Shown: positions 1 through 16,411 of the stretch, one piece after another
Layout: every line of letters starts with the position of its first letter
Position numbering within the stretch: position 1 is the first letter of the stretch
Assembly (NCBI GenBank): GCA_002887195.1
Contig: PJAB01001201.1
Span: 1-16,411, forward strand
Source of the DNA: Chrysochromulina parva
Taxonomy: Eukaryota; Haptophyta; Prymnesiales; Chrysochromulinaceae
Direction of reading: 5' to 3'
Length of the DNA stretch: 16,411 bases
Notes under the pieces: model-generated
Database searches by the model: none
Told to the model about the DNA's origin: nothing
What the model saw: the letters and a program-made list of their open reading frames with translations, nothing else
Made by a program: the position numbers and the translations under genes

Positions 1-132
1 TGGCACCTTGCCGTCGCTGCCTTCCGGGTTCGGGTAAATCAAGGCGTGCCGCTGAACAACCATGGAGAGCGAGACCAGCGAGCCGGCAACCACCTCGAGC
101 ACGATCGCCAAGACGATCGAACCGGTCGCCAT
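1..132 (-). CDS. NIPA-like (DUF803) membrane transporter, N-terminal 44 codons only
   Basis: On the minus strand an ATG (complement of 130-132) opens a frame that runs 44 codons off the window edge. The peptide starts MATGSIVLAIVLEVV and continues through a hydrophobic segment to SMVVQRHALIYPNPEG. One membrane helix followed by a Q-R/K-x-A/G-L motif resembles the first helix of NIPA magnesium transporters of the DUF803 family, but only this helix is visible, so the family call is tentative. The context GGCATGG is Kozak-like. The copy at the right end encodes the same 44 residues with one silent change (GGT versus GGG at codon 4). The leader contains a 7-bp stem with a 7-nt loop (207-227). The gene is divergent from the EF-hand gene, with 300 bp between the starts. 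The fragment is cut by the contig end, not by mutation. Confidence 0.5.
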   Translation of the reverse strand, partial: MATGSIVLAIVLEVVAGSLVSLSMVVQRHALIYPNPEGSDGKVP

Positions 133-193
133 GCCGCGATCGCGTCCGGCGGCGACCGCTCGTTTTCAAAGGGAACAAGGCTTCGCGGACCGG
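1..193. repeat. Left arm of terminal inverted repeat
   Basis: Bases 1-193 read as the reverse complement of 16223-16411. The first 162 bases match with one substitution (position 121). Beyond that there are two 2-base indels plus a mismatch up to 193, and then similarity fades. The well-conserved part is the coding start of an outward-reading gene plus some of its leader. Both arms end at exactly the same base. No transposase, integrase or polymerase lies between the arms, so this looks like two copies of a duplicated gene at contig ends rather than a transposon terminus. Confidence 0.9.
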
Positions 194-2610: not shown

Positions 2611-3930
2611 GCTACATTAAAGGCTCTTCCACCCCTTACTTAAACACAATGGATTTGGGGGGGGGGGGCTTATGCCATTTCTGTGGTCGCGTTCGTCGAT
2701 CAAAATTCGACGGTAAAATTTCGAAGATTAGTCAACTCGATATCTAGTTTCGTCAACGGGCGCTAGTAGCTCGCTTTCGTGCTGCCGTGCGCGCTACCAA
2801 GGCGTCTCGTCTAGCGTCTAGACGAACCGTAAACGCAATCTGCGCTCCCATCATGCTTCCCACTCGAGCTTTTTCGGCGATTCGCGCGGCTGTCGTGACC
2901 CATTCGGCCCCTGTGAAGATTCCGACCGCGATGGAAGGATACGAGTACGCTGCTCTCATGCGCGCAATCGAGGTTGTGAAGACCAAGCCGCTCCTGCTTG
3001 GCTGCTCGCACTCGAGGGCGACCTCGTGCACGAGCTACTTGTGCCCATTCTGTTCGAGCTCGCGCGAGGCGCCCACAGACGAGAGGAGCATAACACACTC
3101 AAGGTGCCCATGATCGAGGCTGAGCATCATCGCAATCTTGCTAGAGGTCGTGTCGGGTGCACGCGCACGCCTGGAACTCACACCTGGAAGGTATCCCCGT
3201 TATTACTTAGACGGTATGTATCCGTCTTTTGTCGGCCTCTCGCGCGTGGTACGCGCGCGTCACCGACAAATAATGTTTCGCGCGGAGCATCTTGGCTTTG
3301 GTCGTCTGGGGTTCAACAAAAGTAACACGTGCTCTGGAGGTTATTTCTCTCTTCGCCATGCTCTTAGCACATGAGTGGCGTGGCGACCCACACCGGTCAG
3401 GGGGGATCTCCCCCAGGATCCTCCGCCGCTCGCACGTCCCCTCGCCGCACCGACCCCTCGCCGCGTACCGTGCCGAAATCCGAATGCACAATTCGCATGT
3501 GTTCTGTTGTTCTCTGGCCAACCCGATTTGCAGGACGAGCGCGCTTACGCATTCCAGCTTTATCTGCGCTTGTCGGCTGCATCTCACTGCGTCGCGAATC
3601 GCGGGTCGTGTGTAAGAAATCACAGACACCCAACAAACATCTTTCACACCATATTCACACACCATACGTGGGTTCCGAGAAGTGGGGGGATTAGAGGGCG
3701 AGAGGCCCATGGCGAGCTTAAAGCTCATGTGTTCTGTTTGTTGTGTTCAGTTTTCGTGCATCGCTAGATCCTAGACACATCGCATGAGCATTCAATTCCC
3801 AAACAGGTGTAGGGATGGGCCCTATGAATAACATGCAAATAATGGTAGACCACTGGCCATATGCCACTGGGCCTCTCGTCTTTGGGTCAAGGCTGCCGCT
3901 CTTGGCGTTACTGTGGAGGTTGCAGTCTGC
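2611..3930. other. Intergenic stretch without a convincing gene
   Basis: This 1.3-kb spacer lies between two convergent genes, so it should hold both 3' ends. Its base composition is more AT-rich than the flanking genes. A run of 12 G lies at 2657-2668. Short frames occur on both strands (for example the minus strand of 2753-3031 and of 3207-3728), but none shows a recognisable motif or coding-like composition. Two adjacent hairpins lie at 3209-3269. A GC-rich 6-bp stem with almost no loop lies near 3396. I see no tRNA, rRNA or mobile-element gene. Confidence 0.6.
3209..3269. other. Two adjacent inverted repeats (possible structured RNA)
   Basis: AGACGG (3209-3214) pairs with CCGTCT (3222-3227) around a 7-base loop. 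One base later TTGTCGG (3229-3235) pairs with CCGACAA (3263-3269), and CGCGCG at 3241-3246 can pair with a CGCGCG inside 3252-3259 within that outer stem. Two neighbouring hairpins in an otherwise empty spacer could belong to a 3' UTR element or a small RNA, or be chance in GC-rich DNA. They match no RNA family I recognise. Confidence 0.35.
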
Positions 3931-6734: not shown

Positions 6735-7361
6735 ATGGCTGCTTCTTCGACGACCAGTCCTGCTGAGGCAACGTCCGCTGAGTCGACGTGGGGCAGCGGG
6801 TTCGGTGGCATGTCAGTCGTCGCGGCGGCGTTCGCAGCGCTGTCGGTGCCAGCCGTTCTGTCTGGCCGTGCCTCGGTGGCGAAGCAGTCGCTCGGCCACA
6901 GATTGGAGGTGCTGATGCTCTACAAGCGCATCCTGCGTACCTGCCAGAGCTGGCCGTCGGTCAAAAAGGCGGAGGTCGCCGCCAGCATCCGCGACGAGTT
7001 CCGAACCAATGCCAGCGAAAGGTCTCCCAAGAGGATCGAAAAGATGCTCGCGGAGGCTCGCTCGGGGCTCCAGCAGCTCTCTCATCAGGCGGCGGAAGCG
7101 GCCAGAGCGCGGGCGACGCCGGGCGTTCGACGCGGGGATGCAGCCCTTCAGCGTGGAGATCCACGCCTTCAGGCCCACAGGTGGGCGCTCGACGAGCTCG
7201 GCGTGGGTGCGAAGCCGACGATGGCCGACCTGAAGCTGGCGTATCGCGAGCGCGCGAAGACGTGCCATCCTGACAGCGGCGGCACGGCCGAGGCCTTCGA
7301 GCGACTCACGCGCGCGTGGGAGCACGCGCAAAAGCATTATCCGCGTGTGGTCAAGGCTTGA
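6735..7361 (+). CDS. LYR-domain / J-domain fusion protein (putative mitochondrial Fe-S co-chaperone)
   Basis: This is a 208-residue frame and the first ATG after an in-frame TGA. Residues 22-43 are a hydrophobic, Ala/Val-rich stretch. M26 (6810) is a possible alternative start that would give a presequence-like N-terminus lacking acidic residues. Residues 55-115 match the LYR (Complex1_LYR) helical fold: LYKRILR at 62-68 (LYK in place of LYR), SWP, then SIRDEFRTN at 84-92 with the conserved phenylalanine, and a third helix KRIEKMLAEARSGLQQL. Residues 148-202 are a short J domain: helix I (HRWALDELGV), helix II (LKLAYRERAKTC), intact HPD at 178-180, and helix III (AFERLTRAWEHA). LYR proteins act in mitochondria with acyl-carrier protein in Fe-S cluster and complex assembly, and J domains stimulate Hsp70 ATPase. 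One chain carrying both would bring Hsp70 to a LYR/ACP complex, as HSC20 does in trans. Both domain calls rest on motifs. The fusion is in one uninterrupted exon, so it is not a splicing guess. Confidence 0.85.
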   Translation: MAASSTTSPAEATSAESTWGSGFGGMSVVAAAFAALSVPAVLSGRASVAKQSLGHRLEVLMLYKRILRTCQSWPSVKKAEVAASIRDEFRTNASERSPKRIEKMLAEARSGLQQLSHQAAEAARARATPGVRRGDAALQRGDPRLQAHRWALDELGVGAKPTMADLKLAYRERAKTCHPDSGGTAEAFERLTRAWEHAQKHYPRVVKA

Positions 7362-7844
7362 AAACGCCAGAGGCACATGATGGTATCGTCGATGACTACA
7401 ACGTTCCACGCGATGTAGCATGTAGGTCGGAGGGGCGCGGTCTTTGTAGGCCGTCCCACAAACTGTACAGTATGATGGCTGACAATGCAATTTACCCCCG
7501 CCCCCACCTTATATAACCTTGTATCCTATCACAATCCCGCCCGGCAGCATATGGCAGAAAGCGACAGGGAACACGTCCCTGCACGCTGGGGAGACCAAGA
7601 CCGGACTAGCACTAACTAGCACAATAATCAATATATTGGTGCTCATGATTGTTGCCGCATTGGTGGAGACAGTGCGACCCGAGACGAGCGCGAGCGTGCG
7701 TGGAGTGACACTCAGTACTTGTGTTGACCGAGGGGTGCGGAGCCGTCCGTTGAGACGGTGTTGTGGTGAGTTCGGATCACCGCGACGTAACTGACTGACT
7801 GTCTGGAACCGCTTCGCTCGTTTAGCTTCGAAGAAAGCGTCGTG
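7362..7844 (+). promoter_or_regulatory. Upstream region of the coiled-coil gene
   Basis: This 483-bp spacer holds the 3' end of the LYR-J gene and the promoter and leader of the next gene. It is AT-richer than the coding DNA. A TATA-like box lies at 7510-7516. A possible leader intron runs from GTGAGT at 7766 to TTTAG ending at 7825, with TAACTGAC as a branch-like site between. No gene is seen inside. Confidence 0.4.
7510..7516 (+). promoter_or_regulatory. TATA-like box
   Basis: TATATAA stands out in a C-rich context, about 335 bp before the coiled-coil gene ATG. If it is used, the leader would be about 300 bases, part of which could be removed by the proposed leader intron. It is a sequence match only; no start site is known. 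Confidence 0.3.
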
Positions 7845-8603
7845 ATGGGCGCGCGCTGGCGCGACGCTTCGATGCAGTGGCCTGGGTCGGCTCTCGGCTC
7901 GATCGGCAGCCGGCTGCGCGAGCAGGCGGCGGAGCTGCGCGAGCAGGCCGCGGCCGCTGCCAGCTTAGCTGCCGAGAATGCCAAGGGTCTGCGCGAGGAC
8001 GCGATCGAGAAGGCCAAGAGCCTGCGTGAGGATGCTGCGGAGGTCGCCAAGGTGGCCGCACTGCAGGCATCCCGGCTGTCTGAGGGCGTCGAGAGCGCTC
8101 GCCATCTGGTCCAGGACGCGCGCGCATCCGTCGGGCAGATCCTCGACGATAACGACAAGGTCGAAGACCTGCTGCGCTCCAAGAACCAGCGCATCCTCGA
8201 CCTGGAGCGCGAGTGGAGGGCACGCTCGGAGGAGCTCGAGACGCTCAAGCAGCGAACCGTCGTCAAGTTCAAGGCCATGTCGGCGGAGAAGGCGGCGCTC
8301 GAGGAGCGGCTCCGCGTCGCTGAGGCAGCCGCCGCCGCCGCCGCCGCCACGTCCACCGCCGCGCCTCCGGACTCACCCATGCCAGCCGGCGCCGGCGCCT
8401 GGTCAGGGGGCGGCGACACGCTGATCGCGTTCGACTCTCCCGCGCCGCCGCTGATCGCCTTCGACTCCTCCGACTCGCCGCTGATCGCCTTTGACTCACC
8501 CGCCGACGGAGCCCCGCCCGCGACGCCCGCCACCATGGGCGAGAATGGCATGGGCGTGAATGTGATCAGCCCAGCCTCCCTCTTCGCGACCCCAGCACAC
8601 GCT

Positions 8604-8636
<33 letters not shown>

Positions 8637-11275
8637 GCCCCCCCGTCGTCGGCGGAGCACGAGCAGCAGTGGCAGGCGCGCGTCAACGCGCTCGAAGCCG
8701 AGCTCCGGCTCGCGCACGAAGAAGTCACTACCAAGGAAGCGAGCCTGAGTGACTTGCGATCCAAAGGGAGAGAGGCGCTCAGCCGAATGAAACGAGAGAA
8801 CACAGAGCTGACGCGCCGCCTGCAAGCGCTCACTACGGCGCTCGAGAAGGCAGAGGAGGCGTCGGTAGGTGCGAGCGAGCGGGCGACGGCCGCGGAGGCG
8901 AAGGCGGCGGCGGCCGAGGCGAAGGCGGCGGCGGCGCAGGCGGCGGCGCAGGCAGCGGCGCAGGCGGCGGCAGTGGCCGTCGCTGATGCGCAGGAGAGTG
9001 CTGCTCTGCGCTGGCACGCGGCAGCCGAGGCACAGCCGACGCCTCGGCGTGACTCAGGGGCGTCGGACAGCGAGGCGGCCGCAGCGGCCGAGATGGCGAC
9101 GGCGACCGCGGCGGCGGCCGTGACCGAGGCCAACGCGCTACGCGAGCGACTGGCTGCCGTCGAGACGCGTCTCTCGGAGGTCACGGCTGAGCTGACAGAG
9201 ACGCACGCGCGGCTGGCGAGCGCCCAGAGCGACGCCCGCGCTGAGGTGAGCGCTCAGCTCGACGCGCTCGAGGCGCAGCTGGCGGCGGCGGTGAGTCGAG
9301 GGGATGAGCTGCAGGCGGCCGTGGCGGAGGGGGAGGCGCGCAGAGGGGCGCTCGAGACGGCGCTGCAAGCGGAGGCGCTCGAGGCAAGGCAGGAGGCGCA
9401 GGCGGCGGAGGCGAAGGCGGCGCAGGCGGAGGCGAAGGCGGAGGCGAAGGCGGTAGAAGCGGAGGCGAAGGCGGTAGAAGCGGAGGCCAAGGCGGCGCAG
9501 GCAGAGGCCAAGGCGGCGGAGGCGGAGGCGGCGCTGGCATCTCTCTCGCAGCAGACATCGGGAGCGGATACGGCGGCGGCGCGCGTGGCGGCGCTAGAGG
9601 CGGCGCTAGAGGCGGCAGAGGCGTCCAGGGCGGCGCACGTCGAGAGGTTACAGGAGGAGGCGGCGGCGGCACGCAAGGAGTATGAGGCACTCAAGGCGCG
9701 GCTAGAGGCGGCGGCGGCCGAGAGGCTTGCCAGTGCGTCGGGAAGCGTCGTGGTGGCGGCGGCGGCGGAGAGGCTTGCCAGTGCGTCGGGAAGCGTCGTG
9801 GTGGCGGCGGCGGCGGTTGGGGTGGCGGCGGCGGTAGAAGCGGTGGAGAGCACGAAGCATGACGGTGTGAAGTGTGAAGACGAGGGCGAGGAGGGCGAGG
9901 ACGGCGACATGGCCTCCCCCGAGGGCGCAACGGCGGCGACGATGAAGAAGAAGAGGAAGAAGAAGAAGAGCAGAGCGAGCAAAGACGAGCCGGAGGCGGC
10001 AGGTGACGCGGTGGTGGCTCCAGCGAACGAGCCATTCACAGCGGATGAGCCATTCACAGCGGACGAGCCATTCACTCTCGGCAATCACGAGTCAATGACT
10101 GTGCTCATTGCCGGGCTGGGCGGCGAGAGTCCCCTCACCATCGCCCACAGCCCCACCAACGCCCACAGCCCCAGCAACGCCCACAGCCCCACCATCGCCC
10201 ACAGCCCCGCCATCGCCCACAGCCCCAACAACGCCCACAGCCCCGCCATCGCCCACAGCCCCGCCCCCCCGGAGACTCCGTCATGGCTCAACCAAGCGCA
10301 AGGCGCTCTGATCGACTTTTCGTCATTCAGCGATCGGCCGCCGGCCGCGGCGGCGGCGGAGGTCGAGGCGCTCAACACGGCGCTCCAGTCCGCGTCGGCG
10401 GCGGAGGCCGAGGCGAAGGCGGTGGCCGTGGATGCCGAGGCCCGTGCTGTCGCGGCGGAGTCTCGCGCTTCCACAGCCGAGGCCGAGCTCGAGGCGCTCA
10501 GCACGGCGCTCCGAGTGGCCGAGGCCGAGCGGGAGGCGCTCACTACGGCGCTCAAAGTGGCCGAGGCGACGGCCACGCAGCAGCAAGCGGCCATGCAGCA
10601 GCATGCGGCAATGCAGCAGCAAGCGGCAATGCAGCAGCAAGCGGCGGCCACTACGCCGCAGCCGCAGCCGCAGCCGCAGCAGCAGCAGGAGGCCGCGCAG
10701 GCGCAGGCGCTTCAGGCGGCGGCGGCGGCGGCGGCGGAGGCGCTGGCGAGGGCGGAGGCGGCGGAGGCGGCGCAGGCGCAGGCGCAATCGCGGGCGGCGA
10801 GCGCGCAGGCGGAGGCGGCGCAGGCGCAGGCGGAGGCGGCGAGCGCGCGGCAAGATGCCGAGGAGCGTCTCGCCTCAGCGGCTCGATTGCGAGAGCAATC
10901 AGAGGAGGAGGCGGCTCGATTGCGAGAGCAATTAGAGGAGGAGGCGGCTCGATTGCGAGAGCAATCAGAGGAGGAGGAGGCTCGATTGCGAGAGCAATTG
11001 AGGCACGCGCAGCAACAGGCGCAAGACGCAGAGGCGGCGAAGGAGGCGGCGGAGGCGGCGAGGGAGGCGGCGGAGGCGGCGAAGGAGGTGGCGGAGGTGG
11101 AGAAGGAGATGGCCGAGGGCGCCAAAGAGGAGGCGGAGGCGGCCTTGCACTCCGCGGCGATGGCGCGGCAGGCTGCCGACGACGCACGTGAACGGGCCGA
11201 GCGCCGTGCCGAGCGCGAGAAAGAGGTTCTCGAGGCGCAGAGGGCATCGCTCGAGGCACAGGTGGAGCGACTGTC

Positions 11276-11311
<36 letters not shown>

Positions 11312-14300
11312 CGTGGCGACGGCTGTACCAGCGTTGACGGCTTCTGCGGCGGACAGTCACAGTAGCGCGACGGCGCAAGCGACGCGTTCGGTGGTTCATC
11401 TCGACGAGAGCGCGCCGATGGTGATGGGCGAGGATGGCGAGATGAGGCCTGTCATTAGGACGTCATTAGGAGGCAATCAGGTGATGGGCGAGGATGGCGA
11501 GATGAGATCGGCGCGGGCCGACGACGTGGGCGCCCACGACAGCGCCGCCGCGGCCACGGCGGGCGCCCACGACGACGCCCACGACGAAGGCGAGGAGCTC
11601 CGGCTGAGCGCCGTCTCGAGCGTCGCCGCCAAGCGCGGCGTCGTGCGCAAGCTCGCCGCCGAGCGCGCGCAGCTGAGCGCGGCGCTCGAGACGGCGCGTA
11701 CGCAGGCGGCGGAGCTGCAGGCGGCGTGCTCGGTGCTCGCGCAGTCGAACCTCTGATGACCTCTCTGATGACCTCTGATGACCTCTGATGACCTCCGATG
11801 ACCTCTGATGGCCCCTCTCCCCACAGGTGCTGGCGCAATCGAACGACGCCCTTGAGAAGAAGGTGACGAAGCTCGAGACGAAGGCGAGCGGCGCGAAGGA
11901 GAGTTTGAAGGAGGCTCACGCGGAGGCCAAGGAGGCGAAGCGGCTGTGGGAAGTCGAGCGGAGGGCCCTCGGCGCCGACAAGGTGGAGCTGGCCAAGAAG
12001 GTGACGAAACTCGAAGAGGAGGCGGCGAGCTCTGATGACCTCCCTGATGACCTCTGATTGCCTCCGTCATCAGGTGACGAAACTCGAAAAGGAGGCGGCG
12101 AACCTGGCGCTGCAGCTCGAGAGGTGCGGCTGATGGCGGCTGATTACGGCTGATTACGGATGATTACGGATGATTACGGCTGATGACGGCTGATGGCGGC
12201 TGATGGCGGCTGATGGCGGCTGATGGCGGCTGATGGCGGCTGATGGCGGCTGATGGCGGCTGATGACCTCGCGCGCCCACCCGCCCTCAGAGCGACGGCT
12301 CGGCTGCGTGCACTCGAATCCGAATCAAGTCAACGGCTCGAGAGGGGCACGCTGCCCTCACTGCCCCACGGCGCCGATGACGCGATGGTGGCGCTCGCGA
12401 CGCTCAATCAGGAGCTTGTGAATGCAAAGCTGCGTTGCGCCGAGAGCGAGGCAGACCGTGCGCAGCTCCGACGTGAGTTCAAGCGGATGCAGTCGGCGAT
12501 GGAGAAGCTGCATACGGCCGAGCTCGAGGAAGTGGCAGTCGAGGCAGCAGCACCCTCGCGCCCGTCGTCGCGCCCGTCGTCGCCCAACACGGCCGCGGCG
12601 GCGGCGGCGGCGGCGGCGGCGCTTACGACCGAGGCCCCCGCGTCCATCGAGCCCGGCGCTCCACAGCACGGCGCTCGACACAGCGCTCTGCCGCACGAGG
12701 CCGAGCCGTCCATCAGCGCCGTGTCGAGCGCCGGCGCGCCGTCGAGCGCCGTGTCGAGCGCGCCGCCCACCCCGATGGCGGCGGCACAGAAGCTGATGGC
12801 TACACTGGCGAAGAGTGAGGCGCGCGGCCGACCCTCGAGTTCGAACTTGATGACCTCGGATGACCTCGGATGACCTCGGATGACCTCGGATGACCTCGGA
12901 TGACCTCGGATGACCTCGGATGACCTCTGATGACCTCTGATGACCCTTGATGACCTCTGATTGCGTCCCTCATCAGGCGCGCGGCGCGACCCTCGAGCTC
13001 GAGGCGATCCGACGCGACCTCGCCGCCGCCCAAGCGGACGCCGCGCGTGAGCTCCGGGGACGCGAGGCAAGTGTGATGAGGGTGGCGGCGCTTGAGACGG
13101 CGCTCGCGGCGGCCGAGGCGCGGGAGGGCGAGGCGCGCGAGGCGGTGCGCTGATGACCTCTGATGACCTCGGAGTGCCCTTGATTGCGTTCCTCATCAGG
13201 CGCGCGCGCAAGGCGGTGCGCTGATGACCTCTGACGACCTGTGATGACCTCTGATGACCTCAGAGTGCCCTTGATTGCGTCCCTCATCAGGTGCGCGTGC
13301 TCACGAGCGAAGTCGACACTCTCGAGGCGAAGGTCAAGAAATCTCCAGGAGCTCGAACTTGATGGCCCCTCCTAATAACCTCCGCATGACCTCCGCATGA
13401 CCTCCGCATGACCTCCTAATAACCTCCGCATGACCTCCTCATGACCTCCCTGATGACCCTTAATTACACCATCAGGTCAAGAGTCTCCAGGAGCGTAACG
13501 GCAAGGCGAAGGAAGTCGTGCTCAAGCAACAAGACGAGCGCAAGCAGCTGGTGAGCGAGTGTGAAGAGATGGGGAGGCAGCTCAAGGTACGTTCAAAGGA
13601 GGTCGAGCGGGCGCAGGCGGAGGCGGCCGAGGCGCATCGTCAGCTTGAGAAGCTCAAGATGAGCCTCTCGGACGCTGTGGGGAAAGCGAGTGTACTCGCC
13701 GAGGCGAAGGCGGCCGCGGACAAGGCGGCCAAGGGCGCAGCGAGCGAGCGAGACGCGTTCCAAGCGAAGGTCGAGAAGCTCGGGGCGGCCGGCGCCAAGG
13801 TGCACGCGAAGCTCGTCGACTGATGACCTATGATGACCCTGAATGACCCTTGATTGCATCCCTCATCAGCCGCGAAGCTCGTCAACTGATGACCTCTGAT
13901 GACCCTTAATGACCTCTGATGGCCCTCAATGACCCTTGATTGCATCCCTCCTCAGGTGCAAGCGAAGCTCGTCGCGGCCAAGGAGGAGCTCGCGAAGGAG
14001 AAGGGCGCGTCGGAGAAGGCCATCAAGGAAGCAAGCGCGCTCAAGAAGCAGCTCGAGGTGCTCAGCACGACGCGCGAGCGCCTCGAGCGCGATGCGATGC
14101 GATGGCGGGAAGAGGCCGAGGACGCGCAGGCCGAGAGCGACGCGATGCGCGCGCGCGTCTCGGCGCTCGAGCGCGAGCTCGCGGGAGCTCAGGGGCTCGT
14201 GATGCAAAAGGAGCTCTTGCTCGCCGACCTCGACCCGCATGCCTTGACGAACCTCAAGTCGGAACGCGACGCCGCCGCCGACGATGCCAACGGCTTTCGT

Positions 14301-15869
14301 ACGCGCGTCGAGAATCTGAGCCGCGAGCTTGGGGCCGTCAAGGCGGAGCTCTCCGAAGGGCGCCAAGCGTGGGAAGGGGAGCGTCGTCGCTTCGAGATGC
14401 TGCTCTCCCTCGCAGCCGCCAACAAGGCCCTTGGTGAAACGCCCGCGACGGCGCCAGCGCCCGCGACGGCGCCCGCGCCCGCACCCGCGCCCGCGCCCGC
14501 GCAGAGTTTTGGGGGCGGGTTTGCGGACTTCTCGGCCGACTTCTCGGCGGGCTTCGGCGACGCGGGCGACGCGGGCGACGGAAGCAGCAACGGTGGGAGG
14601 GCGGCGGCGGCGGCGGCGGAGGCGACCGCCGCGCTCGAGACGGCGCTCGAACGCGCCGCGTCCGCCGAAGCCCGCGCTCATCAGGCCGCCGACGCCGCCG
14701 CCAAGTCCGCCGCTGACGCCGCCGCCGCCGCAGCGCGCGAGCGTGCCACACTCGAGTCGATCGGCGCGCTCGAGACGGCGCTCCGATCGGCGGAGCAGTC
14801 GCGCGCTGCGGTGGCGGCCGAGCTGGCAGCCTTGCAGCACGAGCGTTCGATGTCAGACGAGGAGCGCAAGGAGAAGGCCGCGGCGCTCAAGGCGAAGACG
14901 AAGGCGTACGTGACGGAGCTGCAGCAATCGTATCAAGTAGAGAGGGCGAAGCTGACAGCCGCCTTGCAAGCTGCGGAGGCGGCGGCGAGTGAGGCGCGCG
15001 CTGAGCTTAAGTCGATGGCGGCCGCCGCCGCGTCCACCATTGCTGAGCATGAGGAGAAGCGCGTGGCGGCCGAGAGGGCGGCCGCGCTGGCCGCGCAGGA
15101 CGCCGCCGCGCAGGCGCGCCATCGGCCCCTGAGCGCTCCACAACGGTCTACTTTCGAGGCGGAGGTGACGGGCCTGCGCACCGAGCTTTGATGACCTCTG
15201 ATGACCTCCCTGATGACCTCCCTGATGACCTCTGATGGCCTCTGATGACCTCCCTGATGACCTCTGATGGCCTCTGATGACCTCTCTAATGACCTCTGAT
15301 GACCTCCCTGATGACCTCTGATGACCTCCCTGATGACCTCTGAGTTCCTCCGTCATCAGGTGACGAGATTGCGCACCGAGCTCGAGGTGCTGCGGGGAGC
15401 GAGCGGCGCGGCGGGCGAGGCGAGCGCAGCCAGCCACGTGGCGGCCGAGTGGCTCGCGGCCGGGGATCGAGATTCGTATGAGCGCAGTCTGATGCGGGCC
15501 GATGCGGGGCATGCCGCCCGACTGGCAGCGCTCACGATGGCGCTCGAAAAGGAGGCGAGCGCGCAGGTCGAGTGGCAGCGCATCGCCGACGCGGCCAAGG
15601 CCGAGGCGGAGGGGACGCGACGGCAGCTCTGCGCCCTCCAACGCCAAATGGAGCGGCTGGTCTCTTCACAGCTCGACGATGACGCCGCTGTGAATGAAGT
15701 GGCCGCTGGGAAGCTCGCGGCGCTCACGCCGCAGGAGCTGCGCCGGCAGGTGGCGTCGCAGCGCGCCTGCATCAAGTCGCTCGACGAGGCGCTCGCGCTC
15801 GCCCAGGCGCGGGTGCATCTGCTCGAGACGGCGCGCCCGGTGGCCGCCAAGCCCAGCACTGCGAGGTGA
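7845..15869 (+). CDS. Giant coiled-coil protein, spliced, about 2,277 residues
   Basis: Proposed exons: 7845-11420, 11481-11732, 11827-12000, 12074-12123, 12291-12819, 12977-13144, 13291-13332, 13476-13799, 13956-15164 and 15360-15869. All joins keep the frame: eight introns are phase 0 and intron 3 is phase 2. Keeping the 60-nt segment 11421-11480 would give 2,297 residues. The ATG at 7845 starts MGARWRDASMQWPG. An amphipathic, Ala-rich N-terminal helix leads into long heptad-rich coiled coil (Ala, Glu, Gln, Leu, Arg), interrupted by disordered linkers. The linkers hold three LIAFD motifs (residues 193, 203, 213), poly-Gln (254-264), an EPFTAD triplet (from 729), an AHSPxx array (from 767), and in exon 8 an Ala-Pro linker with FADFSADFSAGF. 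The composition recalls golgins, tethers and myosin-like tails, but no GRIP domain, motor or membrane anchor is evident. The LIAFD motifs fit the clathrin-box pattern. Role unknown, probably a tether or scaffold. Exons 2-9 rest on splice-site and repeat logic, not on transcript data. Confidence 0.8.
8421..8495 (+). repeat. Three LIAFD motifs spaced exactly 10 residues apart
   Basis: Codons for LIAFD start at 8421, 8451 and 8481, each followed by Ser. LIAFD satisfies the clathrin-box consensus L-hydrophobic-x-hydrophobic-[DE]. The flanking residues are Pro, Ser and Asp, which suits an exposed linear motif. Confidence 0.75.
8604..8636 (+). repeat. CAG repeat encoding 11 glutamines
   Basis: Ten CAG codons and one CAA encode a poly-Gln run (residues 254-264) between two coiled-coil blocks. 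As a pure triplet repeat it is probably length-variable between strains. Confidence 0.95.
9720..9815 (+). repeat. Tandem duplication of a 48-bp coding unit
   Basis: Positions 9720-9767 and 9768-9815 are two near-identical 48-bp copies encoding ERLASASGSVVVAAAA. The period keeps the frame. The near-identity implies a recent duplication. Confidence 0.9.
10029..10082 (+). repeat. 18-bp coding repeat EPFTAD, three copies
   Basis: Two complete EPFTAD units and a third EPFTLG lie in the linker after a Lys-rich patch (KKKRKKKKS). The acidic-Pro-Phe pattern recalls DPF-type adaptor-binding peptides, but this is only a resemblance. Confidence 0.85.
10143..10268 (+). repeat. 18-bp coding array AHSPxx, seven units
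   Basis: Seven units encode AHSPTN, AHSPSN, AHSPTI, AHSPAI, AHSPNN, AHSPAI and AHSPAP from residue 767. The Ser-Pro repeats are potential proline-directed phosphorylation sites in a disordered linker. Confidence 0.9.
10881..11012 (+). repeat. 33-bp array encoding an 11-residue coiled-coil repeat
   Basis: Units begin at 10881, 10914, 10947 and 10980 and encode RLREQSEEEAA, RLREQLEEEAA, RLREQSEEEEA and a decayed RLREQLRHAQQ. Eleven residues is a hendecad, so this part of the rod should have little or no supercoil, unlike the flanking heptads. Confidence 0.85.
11421..11480 (+). other. Intron 0 (proposed): 60-nt, stop-free, reverse-orientation introner
   Basis: The first 26 bases (11421-11446) are identical to the 26 bases that follow the segment (11481-11506), both starting GTGATGGGCG. 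The remaining 34 bases contain GTCATTAG twice and end GGAGGCAATCAG. Reverse-complemented, they read CTGATTGC-CTC-CTAATGAC-GTC-CTAATGAC, which is the vocabulary of the other introns on the opposite strand. GT and AG ends are present. Length 60 and no stop mean it could equally be read as 20 codons. Confidence 0.55.
11733..11826 (+). other. Intron 1 (GT-AG, 94 nt)
   Basis: The frame stops at TGA 11754-11756 soon after the proposed donor TCG|GTGCTC. The intron opens with 18 bases (11733-11750) that match the start of exon 2 (11827-11844) with two differences. About five TGATGACCTC-like units follow, then CCTCTCCCCACAG. Phase 0. Confidence 0.75.
12001..12073 (+). other. Intron 2 (GT-AG, 73 nt)
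   Basis: Bases 12001-12030 match the start of exon 3 (12074-12103) in 28 of 30 positions. The remainder is two TGATGACCTC-type units and TGATTGCCTCCGTCATCAG. Donor AAG|GTGACG, phase 0. This is the shortest of the forward-oriented introns. Confidence 0.8.
12124..12290 (+). other. Intron 3 (GT-AG, 167 nt, different repeat)
   Basis: Donor GAGAG|GTGCGG and acceptor CCGCCCTCAG|AGCG join exons 3 and 4 in phase 2, the only non-zero phase in the gene. The body is an array of a 10-bp unit CTGATGGCGG (with TTACGG variants), related to but distinct from the TGATGACCTC unit. There is no obvious copy of the next exon at its start and no CATCAG end. Confidence 0.65.
12820..12976 (+). other. Intron 4 (GC-AG, 157 nt)
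   Basis: Donor GAG|GCGCGC is non-canonical GC. The first ~25 bases match the start of exon 5 (from 12977) with one 1-base gap and one mismatch, which places the donor exactly. About nine copies of GATGACCTCG and further TGATGACC units follow, then TTGCGTCCCTCATCAG. Phase 0. Confidence 0.75.
13145..13290 (+). other. Intron 5 (GT-AG, 146 nt, doubled unit)
   Basis: The intron contains two successive units, each ending TTGATTGCG(T/T)TCCTCATCAG-like or TTGATTGCGTCCCTCATCAG. The first ends at 13199. The bases after it repeat the end of exon 5 (GCGCGCG...GCGGTGCGCTGATGACC) before a second unit runs to 13290. Splicing at the last AG keeps phase 0 (GCG|GTGCGC). Using the inner AG would leave a 16-nt exon that breaks the frame. 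Confidence 0.65.
13333..13475 (+). other. Intron 6 (GT-AG, 143 nt)
   Basis: Bases 13333-13358 resemble the start of exon 7 (from 13476), with indels that would shift the frame if the intron copy were translated. The array uses variants CTAATAACCTC and CGCATGACCTC and ends TTAATTACACCATCAG. It follows a 42-nt exon. Donor AAG|GTCAAG, phase 0. Confidence 0.7.
13800..13955 (+). other. Intron 7 (GT-AG, 156 nt, doubled unit)
   Basis: Bases 13800-13820 match the start of exon 8 (13956-13976) with three differences, and a partial third copy lies inside the intron at 13870-13886, directly after an internal CATCAG. Two introner units are thus stacked. The final acceptor is TCCCTCCTCAG. Phase 0. Confidence 0.75.
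15165..15359 (+). other. Intron 8 (GT-AG, 195 nt)
   Basis: Bases 15165-15188 match the start of exon 9 (15360-15383) at 20 of 24 positions. A long array of TGATGACCTC, TGATGACCTCCC and TGATGGCCTC units follows, then GAGTTCCTCCGTCATCAG. Donor GAG|GTGACG, phase 0. This is the longest intron of the gene. Confidence 0.75.
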
Positions 15870-16279
15870 GAAATAATCACAAGGATACTGTAGTAGACAG
15901 AGCTGAGAAAAGAGAGATGAGAGAGAATAGTACAATTTAGAGACTGAAAGCTGTAACCTGTACGTTGCACACCTGTTCCTCCTTCGGCACAACTCGCGCG
16001 TCGGGCTTCATACTACGGCTCTAGTTGTCCACCGTCGACCGTCGTGCGTGTACACGTCGCGCTTCCCCTGCTAGCAACGAGACGAGGGCGTGGGCCACCT
16101 CAGAATCACCATTCAATTGTAAAGTGAGTACGCAGAGTAACCACAAGTTTATATTTGGAAATCCGATCTTATTTGGAGAATTTGGGCCCGCGGCGAAGCC
16201 GCAGACACGAGCGCCTCCACTTCCGGTCCGAAGCCTTGTTCCCTTTGGACGAGCGGTCGCCGCCGGACGCGATCGCGGC
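15870..16279. other. Intergenic stretch between the coiled-coil gene and the right NIPA-like fragment
   Basis: These 410 bp hold the 3' UTR of the coiled-coil gene and the leader of the next gene. They are purine- and AT-rich just after the stop. TGTAA at 15952-15956 could be a poly(A) signal of the green-algal type, but this is weak. A small hairpin GCGGC-gaa-GCCGC lies at 16190-16202, in the leader of the right fragment. No gene is seen. Confidence 0.5.
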
Positions 16280-16411
16280 ATGGCGACCGGGTCGATCGTC
16301 TTGGCGATCGTGCTCGAGGTGGTTGCCGGCTCGCTGGTCTCGCTCTCCATGGTTGTTCAGCGGCACGCCTTGATTTACCCGAACCCGGAAGGCAGCGACG
16401 GCAAGGTGCCA
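16223..16411. repeat. Right arm of terminal inverted repeat
   Basis: This is the reverse complement of 1-193, with one substitution in the outer 162 bases and small indels in the leader. The match includes the coding start of the outward-reading NIPA-like gene and ends at the same base as the left arm. Confidence 0.9.
16280..16411 (+). CDS. NIPA-like (DUF803) membrane transporter, N-terminal 44 codons only (second copy)
   Basis: ATG at 16280 in the context GGCATGG opens a frame running off the window. It encodes the same 44 residues as the left-end copy: one hydrophobic helix (SIVLAIVLEVVAG...) then QRHALIYPNPEGSDGKVP. The only coding difference from the left copy is silent. It starts 410 bp after the stop of the coiled-coil gene, on the same strand. 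The family assignment has the same limits as for the left copy. Confidence 0.5.
   Translation, partial: MATGSIVLAIVLEVVAGSLVSLSMVVQRHALIYPNPEGSDGKVP

What the first reader, a model, noticed from the sequence alone, without database searches (positions are those of the whole stretch)
11733..15359. A family of introner-like introns whose 5' end copies the start of the next exon
Seven introns here (1, 2, 4, 5, 6, 7, 8) share one plan: a duplicated stretch of the following exon (6-30 bases, imperfect), then an array of TGATGACCTC-type units, and an end close to TTGATTGC(G/A)TCCCTCATCAG (intron 1 instead ends CCTCTCCCCACAG). The 5' splice site lies in the copied exon sequence, so the mobile or expanding part need only supply the branch site and the acceptor. 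This fits intron creation by insertion with target-site duplication, as known for introners in Micromonas and Aureococcus, or by tandem duplication of an AGGT site. The duplications are longer than the short target duplications I know of, and the divergence between copies varies, so the introns may have different ages.
Basis: partly seen in the sequence, partly recalled or inferred. Interest (0 to 1): 0.87.

Follow-up and report, generated by a model that had tools for sequence, protein, structure and literature searches.

The report
Introners with long exon-start duplications
A small alga's genome holds more than three thousand matches to two short intron-making sequences, many of them beside an unusually long copy of the next exon, which gives a fresh way to study how new introns are made.

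Summary
The window's coiled-coil gene reads as one 2298-residue protein if eight introns are removed exactly at the exon-copy boundaries. The intron 3' end has 1391 hits in the 45-Mb genome at up to 2 mismatches, none for the reversed pattern. The organism is close to Chrysochromulina tobinii.

Of 120 sampled family ends, 56 have a strong upstream copy of the next exon, against 0 of 120 re-paired; well-preserved copies run from 14 to about 46 nt, median 24. In 18 unselected joined loci, 8 carry a Pfam domain in the sense frame and 6 of these cross the junction. For a ZIP gene, close homologues are uninterrupted while another record reads into the intron.

A second, sequence-unrelated family (1819 hits) has the same architecture, so the long duplication belongs to the insertion process rather than to one element's ends. 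I call these introners of a new variant: the body brings branch site and acceptor, the duplicated exon brings the donor. Nick-primed, perhaps RNA-templated insertion fits best but is inferred. No RNA-seq was available.

The parts
7842..15869 (+). coiled-coil protein gene, 2298 aa after exact removal of 8 introns (start codon not verified)
   Evidence: one open frame; seven of eight introns in phase 0
11733..11826 (+). intron 1; exon copy 11733-11750, array, ends CCCCTCTCCCCACAG; next-exon original 11827-11844
   Evidence: 18-nt repeat, score 12
12001..12073 (+). intron 2; exon copy 12001-12028, exon original 12074-12101
   Evidence: 28-nt repeat, score 25
12124..12290 (+). intron 3; TGATGGCGGC array, no exon copy found
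12820..12976 (+). intron 4; GC donor, gapped exon copy from 12820, ends GATTGCGTCCCTCATCAG
   Evidence: gapped alignment score 41 against 95th percentile 22 of shuffles
   Evidence: frame test
13333..13475 (+). sixth intron of my count; 7-nt ungapped exon copy, imperfect beyond
13800..13955 (+). seventh intron of my count; two bodies (inner end at 13869), exon copy 13800-13818, exon original 13956-13974
15165..15359 (+). eighth intron of my count; exon copy 15165-15187, long array, exon original 15360-15382

Best explanation
These are introners: short mobile intron-making insertions, some of them young, in a haptophyte close to Chrysochromulina tobinii. Shown by sequence: the inserted body (median about 60 nt) carries branch-site-like units and a 3' splice site; it lies between two copies of 14 to about 46 nt of target; the inner copy nearly always begins GT or GC, so it can serve as donor and exact removal restores the exon; two sequence-unrelated bodies do this. 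Inferred: insertion starts at a precise cut just before a GY, the body's exact AG end is joined there, the other strand is cut a variable distance downstream, and fill-in makes the duplication. The closest known chemistry is target-primed reverse transcription of a short or excised-intron RNA, perhaps begun by reverse splicing into DNA. Nested arrays then grow by local tandem duplication, and each CAG|GT junction could regenerate a donor.
For: Family A: 1391 hits; 752 of 957 exact cores followed by GY against 17-18% expected. Duplications: 56 of 120 against 0 of 120; 46 copies at 90% identity or more measure 14-50 nt, median 24; 21 of 57 GY-starting duplications are identical. Mobility: one 60-nt body identical in C60 and C142, one mismatch in C2004, each with its own duplication. 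Family B: 1819 hits, 21 of 35 with repeats against 1 of 35. Exact excision: 6 of 18 unselected joins have a Pfam domain across the junction, 2 more have one beside it; 8 of 10 hand-picked joins cross (four loci shared with the 18); 34 of 46 joins open against 10 and 8 of 46 unspliced. Gain: P0016, P0017, P0018 uninterrupted, P0019 ends as the read-through of the intron.
Against: No transcript data. 60 of 120 family ends lacked a strong repeat at first pass; 16 of these exceed a shuffled 95% level with gaps, some only through array sequence. Gene and sense bias is not proven: GY next (34 of 38) could be a target preference, 10 of 18 unselected joins show no Pfam domain, and a coding model called 22 of 60 antisense. 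Random 240-nt windows are open in 1169 of 2000, so the frame test is weak. Two 5' fillers tested for a parental origin hit only themselves. Family A ends CTGATGA/TCATCAG can be read as terminal inverted repeats, and C60 and C142 share a 5' body start, which random 5' truncation would not predict. The genome search gave only 5 reverse-transcriptase matches, best 34 bits.
Confidence: 0.55

Rival explanations
1. Introners moved by a DNA transposase (MITE-like), with TSDs that happen to be long and variable.
For: Family A bodies often begin CTGATG and end CATCAG, a short inverted repeat; the same body start recurs in C60, C142 and C2004. Most introner families outside ascomycetes carry at least one DNA-transposon sign (passages of PMC9860276).
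Against: Duplications vary from 14 to about 46 nt, while reported introner TSDs are 3-9 bp. Family B bodies, read by eye, show no such inverted repeat but give the same kind of duplication.
Confidence: 0.22
2. Local tandem duplication across an intron 3' end and the start of the next exon, as in the potato RdRp intron (abstract of PMC4974935).
For: Nested arrays such as L022 and C2004 have this form; 10 of 57 duplications follow a family acceptor.
Against: 47 of 57 do not; one body recurs on different contigs; close homologues lack the ZIP intron.
Confidence: 0.1
3. Repair of staggered double-strand breaks with captured filler, as proposed for Daphnia introns.
For: Would give direct repeats of variable length and variable 5' filler, as seen.
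Against: Daphnia exon repeats are 4-12 bp (passages of PMC4202315). Here the inserts are two recurring families with an exact AG end.
Confidence: 0.1

Closest known systems
Introners of Symbiodinium microadriaticum (PMC9860276, Fig. 2B legend)
   Different: 4-bp TSD and clear TIRs there; 14 to about 46 nt here, and family B shows no TIR by eye
[quoted passage not shown] 2C legend and methods)
   Same: same genus name
   Different: 4-bp TSD, element carries the 5' splice site and borrows the 3' one: the reverse of this case
Fungal introner-like elements
   Same: RNA-based spread has been proposed (passage in PMC9860276)
   Different: described there as lacking TSDs and TIRs and as strongly gene-biased; gene bias is only suggested here
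LINE/SINE target-primed insertions
   Same: variable TSDs, defined 3' end, variable 5' end (general knowledge, recalled)
   Different: no partner element identified here; GY boundary and intron function
Potato RdRp intron gained by tandem duplication (PMC4974935, abstract)
   Same: donor from a duplicated exon piece, acceptor and branch from a parental intron
   Different: single local event; fits only the nested arrays here

Membership tests
Introner (any kind) | many similar introns at unrelated positions in one genome | tested here: met
Introner (any kind) | created by insertion into exon, with intronless homologues | tested here: met
   one locus tested (ZIP); the uninterrupted homologues could be paralogues
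Introner (any kind) | spliced out of mRNA | not testable with these tools
   indirect only: Pfam domain across the junction in 6 of 18 unselected and 8 of 10 picked joins
DNA-type introner (Aureococcus, Micromonas, Symbiodinium) | short TSD of 3-9 bp | tested here: not met
   14-50 nt in 46 copies at 90% identity or more; repeats under about 11 nt could not be seen, so a short-TSD minority is not excluded
DNA-type introner (Aureococcus, Micromonas, Symbiodinium) | terminal inverted repeats of 6 nt or more | tested here: inconclusive
   family A CTGATGA/TCATCAG may be array units; none seen by eye in family B
Fungal introner-like element | no TSD | tested here: not met
Fungal introner-like element | strong bias to genes | tested here: inconclusive
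   GY next in 34 of 38 individually sampled hits and 111 of 120 last-in-cluster ends; sense-frame Pfam domain in 8 of 18; no gene models
Target-primed retroinsertion | variable-length TSD with one exact junction | tested here: met
Target-primed retroinsertion | RNA intermediate and a matching reverse transcriptase | tested here: inconclusive
   5 RVT_1 matches, not linked to the family; filler test negative
Tandem-duplication intron | parental acceptor directly before the upstream copy | tested here: not met
   10 of 57 have it, 47 do not

The most novel reading that the evidence does not exclude
This alga makes introns by a body-independent retro-insertion: the 3' part of an excised intron, with its branch site and AG, is joined at an AG|GY in transcribed DNA by reverse splicing or nick priming. 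The second strand is cut some 14-46 nt away and the exon start is duplicated as a new donor. That would be direct genomic evidence for spliceosome- or RNA-mediated intron gain with a target duplication.
Probability: 0.27. Interest if true: 0.93.

Novelty: new variant of a known kind. Interest (0 to 1): 0.75.

Why it matters
How introns arise in bulk is an old open question. Reported introners mostly show short fixed duplications or none. Here two unrelated bodies, with over a thousand hits each, carry long and variable duplications with one exact end, so the insertion chemistry can be read from junctions. The genome is small, some copies are young enough to have identical duplications, and related sequences with and without the intron exist in public data, so gain can be dated and tested. 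A survey that filters out low-complexity introns, as the 2022 survey says it did, could miss a family built of decamer arrays.

Tried and rejected
Splicing evidence from homologues of the coiled-coil gene: no hit among 7999 scored candidates. Viral contigs: no exact match to the core (the tool says records near this genome may be left out). Rfam: no match in the window. 18S identification: not answered in 16 tries. Parental origin of 5' filler: two fillers hit only themselves. A codon-usage model from the window's ORFs was too weak to call orientation (38 sense, 22 antisense of 60). A de-novo scan for repeats starting at AG|GY found 216 pairs, 40 of them in the CATCAG family (listing cut); much of the rest that I could see is arrays read on the other strand or coding repeats. 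snoRNA-like boxes in the decamer (UGAUGA, CUGA; recalled, from no call) were considered and dropped, since units vary and Rfam found nothing. Selection effects: the 10 proteins were picked because they looked conserved; the 20 regions were mostly picked for clusters of hits; the 40 were remaining places of the list. In family B the acceptor was chosen as the one giving the best repeat, while the re-paired control kept that acceptor, so its contrast (21 against 1 of 35) is somewhat flattering.

Full report
What was checked. The window is the whole contig C1201 of a 45.07-Mb, 2199-contig genome. The LYR/DnaJ ORF at 6735-7358 is 100% identical over 46% of its length to Chrysochromulina tobinii Ctob_010627, so the organism is that haptophyte or a close one. 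I could not get an 18S sequence to name it.

Anatomy in the window. In the gene at 7842-15869, copies of the next exon's first 18-28 nt sit directly before the arrays at four acceptors, with a gapped copy at 12976 and only short copies at 13290 and 13475. Removing eight introns exactly from copy start to AG gives one 2298-residue coiled-coil protein; seven of the eight are phase 0 and one has a GC donor.

Genome-wide family A. TTGATTGCRTCCCTCATCAG has 1391 hits at up to two mismatches and none for the reversed pattern. The exact core TGATTGCNTCCCTCATCAG has 957 hits, 752 of them followed by GT or GC; GY is expected at 17-18% of places. These are hits, not proven introns, and include ends inside nested arrays. 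I read 60 fetched regions, four of the first loci and the window: 65 sequences, 263,769 bases, 182 usable ends, 120 of them last in their cluster. Of the 120, 56 have an upstream repeat of the following sequence with score 12 or more, against 0 of 120 re-paired at random. Of the 60 with score 11 or more, 57 start with GT or GC. Among these 57, 21 have identical copies, 25 are 90-99.9% identical and 11 lower. The 46 at 90% or more measure 14-50 nt, median 24, with a body median of 60 nt. The scan stopped at 50 nt, the longest value includes body-like sequence, and repeats below about 11 nt could not be seen. The other 60 ends had no strong repeat; 16 of them exceed a shuffled 95% level in a gapped alignment, some through array sequence.

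Controls against my reading. Random AG|GY sites of the same loci also show repeats in 56 of 400. In a second draw of 800 this was 28 of 612 with no arrays near, 8 of 20 with an array upstream and 73 of 168 others near arrays. Some of the 28 proved to be introns of another family, others coding repeats. Joined flanks are open in 34 of 46 cases against 10 and 8 of 46 for unspliced flanks, but 1169 of 2000 random windows are open too in this GC-rich genome.

Do they behave as introns? From the individually sampled loci L029-L068 I took, without further choice, the 18 non-tandem cases with a duplication and joined the flanks. Eight have a Pfam domain in the sense frame. In six it crosses the junction (Fn3-like, CHAT, U-box, Chromo, MutS_III, Exostosin); in two it lies beside it (UBX, Arm); ten have none. 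An earlier hand-picked ten gave eight crossing (MutS_III, Zip, Peptidase_C2, EamA, U-box, Fn3-like, Chromo, and an EML propeller just under its cut-off), one with WD40 matches that do not cross and one without a match; four of those loci are also in the 18 with crossing domains, and one more (L050) is in both sets without a match. The MSH2 join aligns to a solved Msh2 chain with no gap at the junction; a one-residue gap follows a few residues on.

An intronless homologue. For the ZIP transporter in L027, P0016, P0017 and P0018 run through the site at 86-89% identity. P0017 comes from a 17.6-kb contig, which I take to be genomic. P0019, a cluster of 91 member sequences from a JGI source, ends in VGDFIHNFVDCLPHLR, exactly the read-through of the L027 intron to its first stop. 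So the intron exists in other public records and close homologues lack it; P0016-P0018 could be paralogues.

Mobility. A 60-nt body is identical in C60 and C142 and differs by one base in C2004; the exon copies beside it are about 23, 30 and 24-26 nt and all different. In C326 three introns share a 54-nt body with at most one mismatch, and the third has GACCC before the body, as the exon copy of the second does. In C148 (L003) a similar body (93-94% identical over 71-85 nt, exon copy included) sits in what looks like an unrelated gene. I read these as parent-offspring traces, but they are single cases.

A second family. Scanning for exon-start repeats showed introns with the core CATGCAAGTGCTCACCACGGCGC and an end near CCCCACAG, unlike family A in sequence. 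It has 1819 hits at up to three mismatches and none for the reversed pattern. Of 35 cores in my loci (up to five mismatches, some of them surely chance), 21 have the repeat at score 12 or more against 1 of 35 re-paired, and 19 of the 22 with score 11 or more are followed by GY. Seventeen of those 22 lengths, entered by hand after dropping five tandem or doubtful rows, have median 23 and do not differ from family A (KS p 0.62). So the duplication belongs to the insertion process, not to one element's ends.

Nested copies. Of 182 family A ends, 62 have another end within 130 nt downstream. C2004 repeats the same exon start with different bodies. This looks like tandem duplication across an acceptor and exon start, as in the potato RdRp case (abstract read). 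Only 10 of 57 duplications are of this kind. Because units end CAG|GT, splicing could proceed stepwise; that is inference.

Mechanism. One junction is exact (AG|GY), the other variable, the duplication is long and variable, and body sequence does not matter. GY follows in 34 of 38 individually sampled hits (two of 40 loci gave no row). This may reflect genes and sense strand, selection for splicing, or a target preference; the Pfam test places at least 8 of 18 in genes in sense. Reported introner TSDs are 3-9 bp, and fungal ones lack TSDs and are gene-biased (passages of PMC9860276). Daphnia break-repair introns have 4-12-bp exon repeats (passages of PMC4202315). A nick-primed insertion of a short RNA, perhaps begun by reverse splicing, fits these features. 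It is not proven: two 5' fillers were found nowhere else, body 5' ends are partly shared, and only five reverse-transcriptase matches came up.

Novelty. Searches for 'introner' (40 of 67 listed), 'introner' with 'haptophyt' (6 papers), Chrysochromulina with intron and repeat (20 of 61 listed), and intron gain with duplication terms (none, 15 papers) showed me no report of introners with such duplications in haptophytes. I saw listings, abstracts and passages, no supplements; the library lacks most subscription papers. The C. tobinii genome paper mentions introns once, giving one per gene on average (passages). The 2022 introner survey filtered families of low complexity (section read).

Noticed in passing
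genome-wide; e.g. L019 minus strand acceptor 5694, L013 acceptor 2862, L015 minus 6989: A second introner family (core CATGCAAGTGCTCACCACGGCGC), 1819 hits, same long exon duplications, unrelated sequence.
   Followed up: partly
L023 minus 6952; L016 minus 1329; L015 minus 3050-3219: Introns with exon-start duplications and other bodies (C-rich, CATGACCC-like, TGATGACATCTCGGCGCCCAG), which may be further families.
   Followed up: no
window 8800-10560: Coding repeats such as GCGCTCACTACGGCGCTC resemble the family B core; chance in a GC-rich coiled coil or exonised introners.
   Followed up: no
window 1-150 and 16260-16411: The contig ends look like inverted copies of each other by eye, perhaps an assembly break at a repeat.
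   Followed up: no
L003 and L013: Similar body and a near-identical 14-nt exon copy in two apparently unrelated genes: homology-guided insertion or gene conversion.
   Followed up: partly
window 6735-7358: One ORF joins a LYR domain and a DnaJ match just under its cut-off; the C. tobinii record fuses its start to the coiled-coil gene.
   Followed up: no
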